The translations under genes were made by a program, and so were the position numbers. This document shows, piece by piece, positions 2,476 through 12,816 of a DNA stretch of 47,658 nucleotides (within the stretch, counting starts at the first letter, position 1; every line of letters starts with the position of its first letter). The notes beneath the pieces were generated by a model, which had not been told where the DNA came from, made no database searches, and saw only the letters and a program-made list of their open reading frames with translations. Origin of the DNA: Bacteroidota bacterium (GTDB lineage Bacteria > Bacteroidota > Ignavibacteria > Kapaibacteriales > UBA2268); the NCBI GenBank assembly GCA_024278075.1, contig JAJRTW010000054.1, positions 1-47,658 of the forward strand, read 5' to 3'.

Positions 2476-3822
2476 TCAAATCTTATTAAAAAGAAATCCA
2501 CCACTATCGGATGAATCAATCATTATCTTATCACCGGCGGCAAATTCACCGCTAAGAATTTTCATTGCCAGCGGGTCGGAGATATGTTTCTGAATAGCCC
2601 TCTTCAACGGGCGGGCGCCATAATGAGTGTCAAATCCCAAATCCGAAATCCAGTCGATAGCAGCATCGCTTATGTCAATTTCAATGCCGCCGGATTCCAT
2701 CTTACGGCGTAATTCATTGAACTGCAGGCTGGCTATCTGCCGGATTTCCTTGAGCAGTAACGGCTTGAACAGAATTATTTCATCAATCCTGTTGAGAAAT
2801 TCCGGACGCATCGTCTGCCTGAGTAAATTAAGAATCTGCACCTTAACTTTAGATAGCAATGATTCGCGGTTCTCTTCGGTCAGGCCGGCTGTTTCAGCTA
2901 ATGCAGTTGTTTGCTCCCGGATAAGTTCAGTGCCAAGATTCGACGTCATAATAATAACGGTATTCTTAAAATTGACAGTCCTGCCTTTCCCGTCTGTCAG
3001 CCGGCCGTCATCCAGCAATTGAAGCAAAATATTAAGCACCTCGGCGCTTGCCTTCTCGATTTCATCCAGCAAAACGACCGAATACGGTTTCTGCCGGACA
3101 GCTTCGGTCAGCTGGCCGCCTTCTTCGTAGCCAACATAGCCCGGAGGCGCGCCAATCAGCCTGCTAACGGAAAATTTCTCCATATACTCACTCATATCAA
3201 TCCGAATCAGCGCATTGTCATCATCAAAAAGGAATTCGGCAAGCGCCCGGGCCAATTCGGTTTTGCCCACACCGCTTGTGCCAATAAAAATAAACGACCC
3301 AACGGGCCTGTTCTCATCCTGAAGCCCTGCCCGCGACCGCCGGATAGCATTTGCAACCGACGAAACAGCATGCTCCTGGCCAATCAGCCGCCTGTGAATA
3401 CGCTGCTCCATTTTCACCAACTTCATCCGCTCGGATTAGAGCATCTTCTGAACAGGAATGCCCGTCCATTTCGCCACCACCTCGGCTATATCTTCGGGCT
3501 GGACCTCTTCTTTCAGCATTTTCCCTTCGCTCTGGAGCTCGTTCAATTTCTCATTCGCTTCTTTCAGCTTATGCTCCAGCTCGTGCAGAACACCATAGCG
3601 AATTTCCGCAACTTTCTCCAGGCTGCCATCCAGTTCCAGGTTGTCGGCAAGGATTTTTTGCTCTTCAATCTGAGCCTTGTAATTCCTGATACGCTCGATC
3701 AGCTTTTTCTCTTTGAACCAATGGCCTTTCAATTCGGCAAGTGTCTCGTTCAATTCCTTTAGTTCTGAGTCAATTTCGGCCAGTCTCGCCCGTGTGGATT
3801 CCTTATGTTCAATTTCCTGCAT
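2476..3822 (-). pseudogene. clpB: clpB remnant: M-domain and second AAA domain, interrupted by in-frame TAA
   Basis: ClpB is a hexameric AAA+ disaggregase of about 860 aa that works with DnaK. Here only the coiled-coil middle domain (3436-3822) and the second ATPase domain (2476-3426) remain. The N-terminal domain and first AAA domain are absent, and a TAG stop lies five codons upstream of the first ATG (complement of 3835-3837). A TAA at about 3433-3435 interrupts the conserved linker: it reads GIPVQKML-stop-SERMKL where the family has KLLExER. The reading frame is the same on both sides, so one GAA-to-TAA change explains it. The AAA2 half keeps Walker A (GTSGVGKT), Walker B ([10 protein letters not shown]), sensor 1 (IIMTSN), sensor 2 (GARPLKRAI) and the GYVG pore loop. 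It is best read as a decaying partial duplicate, although a short AAA2 protein starting at 3426 cannot be excluded. Confidence 0.85.
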
Positions 3823-5422: not shown

Positions 5423-5965
5423 TCAAATGTCAATATCCTGGGGCAAGCCTACCCTCATAAAATAGCGAGCAAAAGCTTGGGATAAATGTTCCCGGTATGG
5501 CGGTAACAGACGAACTCTATATGGTTGTTTTGTTATGTAGTCTGTCAAAAATGAGTATTGCACTCCGTAAACATTGGCAAAATCCACAACAAGAAAATCG
5601 GTTTGATGACTACTGGTATCTATTTTATTAAGTAGATGATAGCTTGTTAAGTGACCTTTTTTTAAATCTTCTTTTCTTCTTTTTCTCGCTCTTTTCGATT
5701 GTTGATCCGTGGGCAATTCATCAAAGAAGATTGATAAGGGTTTATAGGGACATACTAAAACAATCTGAGCTTTACCATTCAGCAAATCGCATGATTGAGA
5801 AAGTATTATTGAATCTATAAGTCTAACTTCAACTTCTTTAATTTCACCATTTTCTTCGAGTTTCATTGGCGGGATGATAATGGGGCAATTTTGAACAAAA
5901 TCACCTTGCTGGAGCATTTCATCTTTATCTATGAGTTTATACCAAGGATAATCCATATCAATCAA
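5423..5965 (-). CDS. Third gene of the TIGR04255-type operon; uncharacterised 180-aa protein with a LSQSCDL motif
   Basis: This small protein has no signal peptide or membrane segment. It contains the motif ILSQSCDLLNG near residue 55, a basic stretch (SKRARKRRKEDLKKGH) near 91-106, and a C-terminal signature PPYREHLSQAFARYFMRVGL. I recall proteins with this combination next to TIGR04255 genes but know of no assigned function. The conserved Ser-Cys-Asp and the Arg/His-rich C-terminus could be catalytic or nucleic-acid binding, which is inference only. Its start overlaps the end of the middle gene by 8 bp, so it is translated as part of the same operon. Base composition is AT-rich compared with the sdh genes next door. 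Confidence 0.7.
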   Translation of the reverse strand: MIDMDYPWYKLIDKDEMLQQGDFVQNCPIIIPPMKLEENGEIKEVEVRLIDSIILSQSCDLLNGKAQIVLVCPYKPLSIFFDELPTDQQSKRARKRRKEDLKKGHLTSYHLLNKIDTSSHQTDFLVVDFANVYGVQYSFLTDYITKQPYRVRLLPPYREHLSQAFARYFMRVGLPQDIDI

Positions 5966-6257
5966 GAACCGGGCGTGGTGAGAATTTTGAAATTGATTTG
6001 ATTCTTACTTTTACGCTAAAAGATTTTTTTATGTGTAATGGTGATATGATGTCATAGGCACTATCATATTCCGGCTCTTCTTCCCTTGCAAATTCGCTAA
6101 CATCTTTAAATAGTGACGTATTGCTGAAATCCTTAACTTTCAAATAATTAAAAAAGTTTGAACTAATATCACGAGCAATAAATTCAATATTGGGTTTTGA
6201 AACTGTTGTACTTGTATCATTAACAGGAATATCTAAAGCTATTAACATAGTGTTCAC
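5958..6257 (-). CDS. Middle gene of the TIGR04255-type operon; 99-aa hypothetical protein
   Basis: The ATG overlaps the upstream gene by 4 bp (ATGA) and the 3' end overlaps the downstream gene by 8 bp. This kind of tight overlap indicates translational coupling of three genes. The protein is acidic in the middle (EFAREEEPEYDSAYD) and ends in a basic, strand-like segment (SFSVKVRIKSISKF). I see no signal peptide, membrane helix or known motif. A second ATG three codons in (MLIAL) could also serve as start. By size and position it could be an adaptor or antitoxin-like partner of one of its neighbours, but nothing in the sequence proves this. Confidence 0.65.
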   Translation of the reverse strand: MNTMLIALDIPVNDTSTTVSKPNIEFIARDISSNFFNYLKVKDFSNTSLFKDVSEFAREEEPEYDSAYDIISPLHIKKSFSVKVRIKSISKFSPRPVLD

Positions 6258-6973
6258 TTAAAAGATTTAAACAATTCACCTTTAGTCATCGTTTTAAATA
6301 AATCACTTAACAATACATGAGATTCATCAAGCCATTTTAATATTGATTTGGATTCAGGGGCGAATTCTACGCCATCAACCCTTGTGTGCATAACCAAACC
6401 CTCTTCCTTTTCACTGTTCATACCGGAATTAACCGTTACTGAAACTTTCCCTAACGCATCATCAAAAACATAACCGAAATTAAACCCTGAAGGCTTGCCA
6501 TTCTTATGGAACTTTTGCTTAATATTTATACCAAGATTTTCAATAAATTCAATGATATTGTCACTTTCAAAGTCAAACTTGAAGAAGTCGATAAATATTA
6601 GATGAGGAATAAACCTTTCAGCTTGCGGATTAAACTTGTCAACGAAAGTATTGATCAATTCCTCTGACCATAAAAAATACTCCTTCCAGAAGTAACTATT
6701 ATCATTAGTATTTAGAGTTAACACCCCAGGGCCAACCTGAAACAATGGATAATCATTCTCAGATTTTCGGAATCTATGAACAGGTTGATTAATAAGCATA
6801 TCAGGTGGGACAATAGGTGGAACCAATGATTCCCTAATCGGATATGTATCCTTGAGAGCAGAATATAAGTCTCCGTCGAGGTAACGGCATTTTTCTAAAT
6901 CATCTTGATTCGAAACTTTCCACCTAAGCTCGAAAATAACTTCTAATAAGGGGGCGTTGGGTAATCTACTCAT
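6254..6973 (-). CDS. TIGR04255-like protein, first gene of a three-gene overlapping operon
   Basis: The ATG at 6973 is chosen because the protein then begins MSRLPNAPLLEVIFELRW. This matches the typical opening of the sporadically distributed TIGR04255 family (NAPLxEVxFELRW); upstream codons to 7069 are hydrophobic AT-rich filler. The length (239 aa) fits that family, about 240-270 aa. Later features are a LFQVGPGVLTLN segment near residue 95, a central WKEYF segment, and a C-terminal HxLLSDLFKTMTKGELF, which resembles the family's ending. No function has been established for the family to my knowledge; its scattered distribution and small operons suggest mobile defence or toxin-antitoxin roles. 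The ATGA overlap ties it to the next gene. DNA is AT-rich, consistent with horizontal acquisition. Confidence 0.7.
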   Translation of the reverse strand: MSRLPNAPLLEVIFELRWKVSNQDDLEKCRYLDGDLYSALKDTYPIRESLVPPIVPPDMLINQPVHRFRKSENDYPLFQVGPGVLTLNTNDNSYFWKEYFLWSEELINTFVDKFNPQAERFIPHLIFIDFFKFDFESDNIIEFIENLGINIKQKFHKNGKPSGFNFGYVFDDALGKVSVTVNSGMNSEKEEGLVMHTRVDGVEFAPESKSILKWLDESHVLLSDLFKTMTKGELFKSFK

Positions 6974-7081
6974 ATAGTTTGATACGTAAATATACCAGAA
7001 AAGTTGTAGAATTATTAAGAATATGAAGTATTGTGAATCAAATATAACTACAAAATCGAAATGAATCAAGAAAACAATTAC

Positions 7082-7104
7082 AAAAAGCCGAAGTCATTCC
7101 GGCT
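7082..7104 (-). terminator. Likely Rho-independent terminator of sdhCAB
   Basis: On the minus strand AGCCG (7104-7100) pairs with CGGCT (7090-7086) over a nine-base loop, followed at once by TTTT. It is located 65 bp past the sdhB stop codon. The stem is short, so confidence is moderate. Confidence 0.45.
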
Positions 7105-7168
7105 CCGGCTAATTCTCGAATAATAATTAAGATATAAAAAACTGATGCAATCAGGAACTGATAATACA

Positions 7169-10526: not shown

Positions 10527-11083
10527 AGTTTAACTTTTAATTTGTGAAAAAATCCCGACAATTATATTATTGATTAACCTACTGTTTTTTATTGCTGATT
10601 AACCTGCTATTAATATTAAGTACATCGTTTAGATGCGGCTAAATTCGTATTTCAAAGCTTCACGGCGAGTTTTTAAATGGATATGGAATCTCATGTGATG
10701 AATAAATTCTGTGCATTATTATTCATTATTATTCAATAACTATAATGGCCGTTCTTTTCGATTGAATTATCATTCTAATCTTCGAATTGGCAATATCAAC
10801 TTACAAAAAAGAAGTAATATATTCAACCAATTATTATATACTGTAACTCCACTTGTTGAGATGGCAAAATCCCGTTTTATCCGGAAGAGTGGGTTAAGGA
10901 ATTCTGAAAATCGTTTCGAAGATATTTTGAGATAAATACAAAAATATGTAAATTGCGATTAATAAGCATCTACGGGATTAATATGTATTATGCATACAAA
11001 CGAGTATCCCATAATGCAAGGAAATATCATTGTGCAAGTGAAAAGTTGCTGGATGATTAAATATGCAACAAAAGAGTTATTTT
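10527..11083. other. Intergenic region between divergent sdhCAB and the AAA/TOPRIM pair
   Basis: About 560 bp of AT-rich DNA must hold the promoters of both divergent operons. A near-duplicate phrase (tgattaacctact / tgattaacctgct) occurs around 10570-10607. The short open frame at 10711-10935 has no coding character. I found no RNA gene or clear promoter consensus here. Confidence 0.5.
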
Positions 11084-12187
11084 ATGAAAAAGCTTAATAT
11101 TTATAATTATAAATGCTTAGAAAAAGTTGAAATGTCAGGCTTGACAAGGGTAAATCTTTTTACAGGGAGAAACAACACCGGAAAATCAACTATTTTGGAA
11201 GCTCTGTCTTTATTTGCAGCAAAAGGCAGCATGGGGTGGATTTTTCAGCTTTTGGACAGCAGGGGCGAATTTAATAAATACGACGATGAAGATGCAAATT
11301 TTGAAACAAATTTAGAATTAATATCGACATTTTTTAGTAATCGAATCGTTGGATTTACCAAAAGCGATAAAATCTCTATAAATTCGGATGTTGAGACCTT
11401 TTCAATGCGGTTTGTAAAATTCGTTGAAGAGGATGTTGTTGAAAAGGATGAATCCGGAAATGAAAAAATAGTTGGAAAGAGAAGGAATTTCAACTATGAA
11501 TTATTTGACGATGTTTCTTATGGCCTTGAATTAAAAGAGGGTTCAAATACTAATATTCTTCATTTGGATAGACGTTTATTCGGAAGAAGGCCTCCTACAT
11601 TTGAAACTTATAAATTTCATTTAATAAATGCCAAGGGAGATGATATTCAAAATAGTGCATCTCTTTGGGATGAAATAACACTTTCTGACAAAGAAGATTT
11701 AGTAATTGAAGCTTTGAAAATTGTTGAGCCAAGTATAGACCGCTTGTCTTTTGTAGGTGAAAATACTTTTAGAGGTTCAAGATCAAGATCAAGATATCCA
11801 ATAGTCAAATTAAGTACAGCGTCAAACCTGTATCCCTTGAAAGCAATGGGTGACGGGATAAATAGGATATTGAATATAACATTAGCCCTTGTTAATTCGG
11901 ATAATGGGTTTTTATTAATTGATGAATTTGAGAATGGCTTGCATTATTCAATTCAGGAGCAAATGTGGGAAATAATATTTGAAATATCAAATCGATTAAA
12001 TATTCAAGTATTTGCAACTACTCATAGCAATGACAGTATAAATTCTTTCGCGAAAGTATTAGAAAAGGGAAGCAATTTAGATGGAAGTTTGTATCGTCTT
12101 GATAGAAAGGAAGGGGAAATTAAAGCACATCTATTTTCTAAGGAAGAAATTACCGAAGCTTCACGTCAACATATAAACTTGCGTTAA
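11084..12187 (+). CDS. OLD-like AAA ATPase, first gene of a predicted defence pair
   Basis: The ATG at 11084 is preferred because MKKLNIYNYKCLEKVEM is the usual opening of these ABC-like (AAA_15/AAA_21) ATPases; the ATG at 11063 would add seven residues. Walker A is GRNNTGKST (28-36). A signature-like MGDGINRIL, Walker B with FLLIDEFENGLH, and the switch histidine in ATTHSND follow in the usual order. Length is 367 aa. The next gene, five bases downstream, encodes a TOPRIM nuclease-like protein. This mirrors two-gene OLD/PARIS-type systems (AriA + AriB), in which the ATPase senses infection and the TOPRIM partner acts as toxin. DNA is much more AT-rich than flanking genes, suggesting transfer. 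Whether the pair defends against phage is inference. Confidence 0.82.
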   Translation: MKKLNIYNYKCLEKVEMSGLTRVNLFTGRNNTGKSTILEALSLFAAKGSMGWIFQLLDSRGEFNKYDDEDANFETNLELISTFFSNRIVGFTKSDKISINSDVETFSMRFVKFVEEDVVEKDESGNEKIVGKRRNFNYELFDDVSYGLELKEGSNTNILHLDRRLFGRRPPTFETYKFHLINAKGDDIQNSASLWDEITLSDKEDLVIEALKIVEPSIDRLSFVGENTFRGSRSRSRYPIVKLSTASNLYPLKAMGDGINRILNITLALVNSDNGFLLIDEFENGLHYSIQEQMWEIIFEISNRLNIQVFATTHSNDSINSFAKVLEKGSNLDGSLYRLDRKEGEIKAHLFSKEEITEASRQHINLR

Positions 12188-12192
12188 TACTT

Positions 12193-12816
12193 ATGAATCA
12201 GGTACTATTAGTAGAGGGTAGAGATGACTTGTTCGTTTTTACTAATATTTTTGAAAAGCACAAGGTAAATGAATCTTTTAAGATTATTGACAAAGAGGGT
12301 GTTGACAATATATTGAAGGGGTTGCCAATTTATGCGAAAAGTGACCTTGCTACGATTGGAATTATTATTGATGCTGATTCCGGTATTTTACAGAAATGGA
12401 GAAGATTGAAATCTGTTTTATCGGAAATAGGATATGTTGTTCCGAACAAACCGTTAGATGGCGGAACAATTATTCGAGATGAAAACTTGCCGGTATTCGG
12501 AGTATGGATCATGCCTGATAATAATGAAAATGGCATGTTGGAGGATTTTGTAAAGTATCTAATACCAAGTAGTGATAAGATAATGCCTTTTATAGAGGAG
12601 ACATTAGATTTATTAGAATCCAAGAAAATAAATAAATATAAGCCTATTCATAAATCTAAAGCGAGCATTCACACATGGCTTGCATGGCAGAAAACACCAG
12701 GCACACCAATGGGATTGGCAATAAATAAAACTTATTTGGATACGAATCAAAAGTTATGCAAGTCTTTTGTGGATTGGATAAATAAATTTTATAATGGATG
12801 CGCTAAAGAAAGATAA
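12193..12816 (+). CDS. DUF3226-like TOPRIM protein, partner of the AAA ATPase
   Basis: This 207-aa protein opens with LLVEGRDD (catalytic glutamate of the TOPRIM fold, residue 8), then has IIIDADSG (the DxD pair, residues 60 and 62) and IMPDNNENGMLEDF, which resembles the DUF3226 signature. It has no signal peptide or membrane helix. TOPRIM domains in OLD, Gabija and PARIS systems cut nucleic acid with bound Mg2+. Here the domain is a separate small protein rather than fused to the ATPase. The 5-bp gap to the upstream gene indicates one operon. It is the likely effector of the pair; its substrate (DNA or tRNA) cannot be told from sequence. Confidence 0.8.
   Translation: MNQVLLVEGRDDLFVFTNIFEKHKVNESFKIIDKEGVDNILKGLPIYAKSDLATIGIIIDADSGILQKWRRLKSVLSEIGYVVPNKPLDGGTIIRDENLPVFGVWIMPDNNENGMLEDFVKYLIPSSDKIMPFIEETLDLLESKKINKYKPIHKSKASIHTWLAWQKTPGTPMGLAINKTYLDTNQKLCKSFVDWINKFYNGCAKER

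What the first reader, a model, noticed from the sequence alone, without database searches (positions are those of the whole stretch)
5423..6973. Three-gene overlapping operon: TIGR04255-like protein, 99-aa protein, LSQSCDL/PPYREHLSQ protein
The genes overlap by 4 and 8 bp, are AT-rich, lie in a mosaic spot beside a chimeric gene, and belong to sporadic families without known function. This is the pattern of a compact, transferable defence or toxin-antitoxin module. It is the best candidate here for an undescribed system.
Basis: partly seen in the sequence, partly recalled or inferred. Interest (0 to 1): 0.65.

Follow-up and report, generated by a model that had tools for sequence, protein, structure and literature searches.

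The report
Three-gene toxin module with TIGR04255 protein
Three small neighbouring bacterial genes form a module that moves between very distant microbes and looks like a built-in poison, its antidote and a third control protein, and relatives of that control protein are found with a whole range of exchangeable poisons.

Summary
The operon is real. On the minus strand it holds A (TIGR04255 family, 6254-6973), B (99 aa) and C (180 aa), packed end to end and AT-rich (34.6% GC beside 52% GC sdh genes). It is conserved: of 61 intact C relatives with upstream sequence, 36 have TIGR04255 just upstream with a B between, across about 20 phyla; one phage contig also carries it. C matches no Pfam family. 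Its confident AlphaFold model has the MazF/PemK toxin fold, but MazF's catalytic Arg and Thr appear absent.

B is hypervariable with a conserved C-terminal tail. Where A is missing (Chlorobiaceae, many Planctomycetota), B-C survives as a toxin-antitoxin-like pair.

TIGR04255 is not tied to C. In genome surveys it usually heads a three-gene operon whose third gene is swapped: C-like, true PemK/MazF, HEPN, zeta kinase, or unknown families. The middle gene changes with it.

Best reading: a three-part toxin module (C toxin, B cognate antitoxin, A constant sensor or stabiliser), working like SecB-type toxin-antitoxin-chaperone systems but with an unrelated A. Toxicity, neutralisation and anti-phage function are inferred, not shown; enrichment near defence genes was not demonstrated. 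TIGR04255 is not mentioned in the open-access full texts searched.

The parts
6254..6973 (-). Gene A: TIGR04255 family protein, 239 aa; constant component, proposed sensor or stabiliser of the toxin-antitoxin pair
   Evidence: NCBIfam TIGR04255 76.6 bits vs cut-off 30, E 2.5e-21; AlphaFold2 model pLDDT 92.5; no confident PDB fold match; viral-library matches include TBP-containing proteins and A0A515MGR4 (E 7.5e-7, TM 0.50)
5958..6257 (-). Gene B: 99 aa (GTG 6257; alternative ATG 6248); hypervariable with conserved C-terminal tail; proposed cognate antitoxin/adaptor
   Evidence: Alignment A6; a B of 64-180 aa precedes C in most loci; B alone with C where A is missing
5423..5965 (-). Gene C: 180 aa (TTG 5965; more likely ATG 5956, 177 aa); QGD...QxCD...YREHxxQAFARYFMRVGLP family with MazF/PemK fold; proposed toxin
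   Evidence: AlphaFold2 pLDDT 92.0; Foldseek PDB: MazF/Kid/CcdB structures make up nearly all of the top 38, best 4mdx E 9.5e-4 prob 1.00; conservation in 55-69 homologues
7084..7106 (-). Terminator-like hairpin between sdhB and gene A, suggesting that A-B-C is its own transcription unit
   Evidence: pattern match; 1 found, 1.2 expected in shuffles
6974..7083 (-). Presumed promoter region of the operon (AT-rich, no clear inverted repeat)
   Evidence: inference

Best explanation
A-B-C is a horizontally moving three-component toxin module. C is a small toxin with the MazF/PemK barrel fold but an altered active site. B is its cognate, fast-evolving antitoxin, which is thought to dock through its conserved C-terminal tail. 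A (TIGR04255) is the constant component that holds or senses the B-C complex; when a trigger (an infecting phage or loss of the element) removes A or B, C is freed and stops growth. Shown: operon conservation, the predicted fold of C, B-C pairs without A, effector swapping next to TIGR04255, presence on plasmids and a phage contig. Inferred: toxicity of C, neutralisation by B, the role of A, the trigger.
For: The A-B-C order is conserved in 36 of 61 intact C loci with upstream sequence. A and C co-diverge (Mantel r 0.64, 0 of 2000 permutations). C has the MazF fold. B-C pairs exist without A: Chlorobiaceae, L023, Planctomycetota, with B as short as 64-66 aa. B proteins can carry DNA-binding domains like antitoxins: a BldC/MerR-type domain in L081 and HTH in the B of related operons. 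In other TIGR04255 operons the third gene is PemK/MazF (6 loci), HEPN-type (5), zeta toxin (L160, also annotated so in CP063527) or a divergent QGD/xxCD MazF-like family, and the middle gene changes with it; HHalign links C to the QGD-NTCD family with E 1.5e-8. Mobility: a plasmid next to the MobF relaxase, a Vibrio plasmid, and a phage contig beside a minor head protein and antirepressors. Two relatives carry VapC-like and BrnT-like genes at the same spot behind sdhB (read by eye from the sequence).
Against: No toxicity or neutralisation data. C lacks the Arg and Thr of MazF by gapless sequence placement (positions 51 and about 75 are D/N and variable), so its RNase activity is doubtful and the fold alone also fits CcdB-like or binding roles. 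The B N-terminus is not alignable across families. A has no confident functional homologue. The largest third-gene grouping next to TIGR04255 (about 26 loci by middle gene, 'AFxP...LSV' third gene) has no known toxin relative. The flanking-gene test gave no clear defence enrichment.
Confidence: 0.6

Rival explanations
1. Plain addiction module: B-C is a two-gene toxin-antitoxin pair that stabilises mobile elements, and A is a passenger or transcriptional co-regulator with no sensing role.
For: B-C without A in Chlorobiaceae and Planctomycetota; plasmid copies of TIGR04255 operons; other TA genes at the same chromosomal spot in relatives.
Against: TIGR04255 is kept with many unrelated third genes, as first gene, and co-diverges with C, which suggests an active role.
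Confidence: 0.2
2. Dedicated anti-phage abortive-infection system in which A recognises a phage product and C acts as effector (a narrower form of the best explanation).
For: Patchy spread; presence on a phage contig next to head and antirepressor genes; the toxin types in the third slot (MazF, HEPN, zeta) recur in defence systems (established knowledge; TAC precedent PMC11618068); the window also holds an AbiLi/PDC-M38A-like AAA gene about 4 kb away.
Against: No clear enrichment of PADLOC families in flanks; no phage test.
Confidence: 0.35
3. The third genes are not toxins: C is a non-catalytic barrel that binds RNA or protein, and A-B-C is a regulatory or stress complex.
For: MazF catalytic residues not conserved in C; the conserved polar face lies on the last helix (E159, H160, Q163, R167, R171) and on R150/R152, unlike MazF.
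Against: True PemK/MazF, HEPN and zeta genes fill the same slot; two-gene B-C forms look like TA pairs.
Confidence: 0.15

Closest known systems
Toxin-antitoxin-chaperone (TAC) systems, e.g. CmdTAC and Mtb HigBA1-SecB (PMC11618068, PMC5105189)
   Same: Three genes: variable toxin, cognate antitoxin with a short C-terminal segment that matters, and a constant third protein; toxins swapped between families
   Different: A is a 240-aa TIGR04255 protein; no SecB match in any search; B has its own conserved tail, not a ChAD
MazEF / PemIK type II toxin-antitoxin
   Same: C has the MazF fold; B sits before C in a tightly packed operon; true PemK occurs in the C slot of related TIGR04255 operons
   Different: C has no Pfam PemK match; catalytic Arg/Thr positions not conserved; different conserved residues (QxCD, EHxxQ..AR..MR); third gene A added
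PanAT / Panacea hyperpromiscuous toxin-antitoxin network (PMC10440598)
   Same: One constant component paired with many unrelated toxins; constant part proposed there as a sensor
   Different: There the constant part is a domain of the antitoxin itself in a two-gene module; here it is a separate first gene and the antitoxin-like B changes with the toxin
TIGR04255 (sporadTIGR04255, NCBIfam)
   Same: A is a member above the curated cut-off
   Different: The family has no assigned function and no mention in the open-access full texts searched; the operon context described here suggests one

Membership tests
TIGR04255 family (gene A) | Score above curated NCBIfam cut-off over the whole model | tested here: met
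   76.6 bits vs 30, model positions 1-252 of 252
MazF/PemK toxin family (gene C) | MazF/PemK barrel fold | tested here: met
   AlphaFold2 pLDDT 92; MazF/Kid/CcdB make up nearly all of the top 38 PDB matches, prob 1.00 for the first 16
MazF/PemK toxin family (gene C) | Sequence match to PF02452 | tested here: not met
   No Pfam family for C and no PemK match among 55 homologues
MazF/PemK toxin family (gene C) | Catalytic Arg (after strand 1) and Thr (end of strand 3) | tested here: not met
   Equivalent positions are D/N (51) and variable (about 75) in 55 homologues; placement by sequence only, no superposition available
Type II toxin-antitoxin system | Small adjacent co-oriented antitoxin and toxin genes, overlapping or nearly so | tested here: met
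   B/C gap 1 bp or overlap 8 bp in the window; same in relatives; B-C without A
Type II toxin-antitoxin system | Antitoxin with DNA-binding domain, autoregulation | tested here: inconclusive
   None found in the window's B; BldC/MerR-type domain in the B of L081, HTH_3 and a weak Terminase_5 (HTH) match in the B of related operons
Type II toxin-antitoxin system | Toxin arrests growth and antitoxin neutralises it by binding | not testable with these tools
   Needs expression assays
TAC (toxin-antitoxin-chaperone) | SecB-like chaperone as third component | tested here: not met
   A matches TIGR04255, no SecB in Pfam, NCBIfam or PDB fold search
Anti-phage defence system | Listed in PADLOC, or enriched near defence genes | tested here: not met
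   No PADLOC match for A, B, C; flanks not clearly enriched
Anti-phage defence system | Protects cells against phage | not testable with these tools
   Needs phage challenge

The most novel reading that the evidence does not exclude
TIGR04255 marks a large, undescribed superfamily of three-part toxin modules in bacteria, archaea, plasmids and phages. One constant sensor protein works with exchangeable antitoxin-toxin cassettes (MazF-fold, PemK, HEPN, zeta and several new toxin families), and phage infection acts on TIGR04255 to release the toxin.
Probability: 0.4. Interest if true: 0.8.

Novelty: new variant of a known kind. Interest (0 to 1): 0.62.

Why it matters
TIGR04255 is an orphan family in roughly 6-14% of the genomes sampled here, with no known role. 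Reading it as the constant part of a modular toxin system gives it a testable function, links several orphan protein families as candidate toxins or antitoxins, and offers a second, unrelated design for what SecB-type TAC systems do. It also describes a divergent branch of the MazF fold with a new conserved residue set.

Tried and rejected
Sequence searches of A and C against the PDB gave nothing real. C relatives in named phage and plasmid collections: none, apart from one weak match to an unannotated phage record. HHalign of C against a shallow PemK alignment failed (Neff 1.5), so the MazF link rests on the fold. A SecB-like fold for A was considered from strand order and dropped: no SecB among its best fold matches. 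A TBP-like fold for A is only a lead: viral TBP-containing proteins match but TM-scores are low and solved TBPs are not evident among the top PDB hits. An AF2212-like domain in the B of L038 was suspected; the genome search did not place a hit there. Divergent TIGR04255 in A-less loci: confirmed only for L077; the 230-250 aa upstream proteins of L042/44/45 and L040/55/76 are not detectably related. No inverted repeat for autoregulation was found.

Full report
What is there. Three minus-strand genes lie end to end at 5423-6973. Gene A is a TIGR04255 protein (76.6 bits, cut-off 30). B and C match nothing in Pfam, NCBIfam or PADLOC. C has a weak but consistent match to phage family phrog_4575 of unknown function (40 of 55 homologues). 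The stated overlaps of 4 and 8 bp hold for the GTG and TTG starts; with the ATG starts favoured by relatives B and C are 5 and 1 bp from their neighbours. The operon is AT-rich (34.6% GC) beside sdhCAB (52%), with a terminator-like hairpin between.

The module is conserved. A scan of GTDB genomes with the C alignment returned 80 loci and one viral contig. Among 61 intact C genes with at least 1.4 kb upstream, 36 have TIGR04255 directly upstream with a B-sized ORF between; L077 makes 37 by profile comparison. The tree of C spans about 20 phyla including an archaeon and mixes Planctomycetota, Bacteroidota, Spirochaetota, Ignavibacteriota and Methanobacteriota in single supported clades; bins may be contaminated, so no single transfer is claimed. 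A and C distances correlate (r 0.64). In the host's phylum C occurs in 12 of 396 genomes, and in its order TIGR04255 in 17 of 123. The stretch behind sdhB is different in every relative checked, and two relatives carry VapC-like and BrnT-like genes there (read by eye).

C. The AlphaFold model is confident (pLDDT 92). Foldseek against the PDB returns almost only MazF, Kid and CcdB structures in the first 38 places, best B. subtilis MazF (E 9.5e-4, probability 1.00). The motif [ST]QxCDL..N lies where MazF has QND..N, but MazF's catalytic Arg and Thr positions are not conserved. The strongest conservation is on the last strand and helix (R150, R152, P156, E159, H160, Q163, R167, R171), one polar face that may be a new active site (inference).

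B. B runs from 64 to about 180 aa, is hardly alignable outside a C-terminal stretch of about 30 residues with a near-invariant Pro, and precedes C in nearly all loci. Where A is missing (L023, Chlorobiaceae, L047, most Planctomycetota) B and C remain, often with 4- or 8-bp overlaps. One such B (L081) starts with a BldC/MerR-type DNA-binding domain. This is the anatomy of a type II antitoxin-toxin pair.

A. TIGR04255 proteins elsewhere also head three-gene operons. In 74 such loci the third gene falls into families: our C (5), QGD-[ST]xCD proteins (7; homologous to C by HHalign, E 1.5e-8), QG..SxC proteins with an HTH middle gene (about 4), PemK/MazF (6), HEPN-type (5, one sequence cluster with the 'RNxCDYD' motif; Pfam HEPN reached for one), zeta toxin on a Vibrio plasmid (1), and unknown families, the largest with about 26 loci counted by its middle gene. 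Pfam supports PemK, zeta, HEPN and LRAT among third genes. Middle and third genes co-vary: the same six loci form the PemK middle and PemK third clusters, and the same four the HEAT-type and 'FLARKI' clusters. So A is constant, and B and C appear to be exchanged together as a cassette. The fold of A is confidently predicted (pLDDT 92.5) but without a convincing PDB relative; viral TBP-containing proteins and an unnamed 202-aa viral protein are the best viral matches.

Mobility. A TIGR04255 operon follows a MobF relaxase on a Mycobacterium plasmid and others occur on Crinalium, Vibrio and Thermus plasmids. A full A-B-C lies in a phage contig between a minor head protein and antirepressor genes.

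Mechanism. I commit to a three-part toxin module: C toxin, B cognate antitoxin, A constant stabiliser or sensor. It works like SecB-TAC systems, in which a phage protein titrates the chaperone, the antitoxin is degraded and the toxin is freed (PMC11618068), and in which toxins vary while short C-terminal antitoxin segments link to the constant partner (PMC5105189). It is not a TAC member, because A is not SecB-like. That phages are the trigger is a guess: the flank test with PADLOC was near background.

Novelty. No paper in the open-access library mentions TIGR04255, and searches for three-part toxin systems did not reveal this one; subscription papers and supplements were not searched.

Noticed in passing
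window 11063-12816 +: AAA_15/AbiLi-like ATPase (PADLOC PDC-M38A, E 3.9e-97) followed directly by a 207-aa gene at 12193-12816, in another AT-rich island on the other side of sdhCAB: a candidate second defence module.
   Followed up: partly
   Followed up: no
window 2476-3822 -: ClpB-like coding sequence appears split into two ORFs (3436-3822 and 2476-3426), perhaps a frameshift or an assembly error.
   Followed up: no
G000:C137:917-1621 (L117): A second TIGR04255 operon in the same genome with different second and third genes.
   Followed up: partly
L108, L120, L130, L136, L162, L171-L187, L230-L237: Large TIGR04255-linked family pair: middle gene with 'NWDGYGA' motif and third gene with 'AFxP...LSV', no Pfam match; candidate new toxin family.
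   Followed up: partly
L042, L044, L045; L040, L055, L076: In Bacillota and in Omnitrophota/Actinomycetota/Myxococcota loci the A slot before B-C holds other 215-250 aa proteins of two unknown families.
   Followed up: partly
L192, L196 (behind sdhB in relatives): Other toxin-antitoxin-like genes (PIN/VapC-like, BrnT-like) sit at the same position behind sdhB: possible hotspot.
   Followed up: partly
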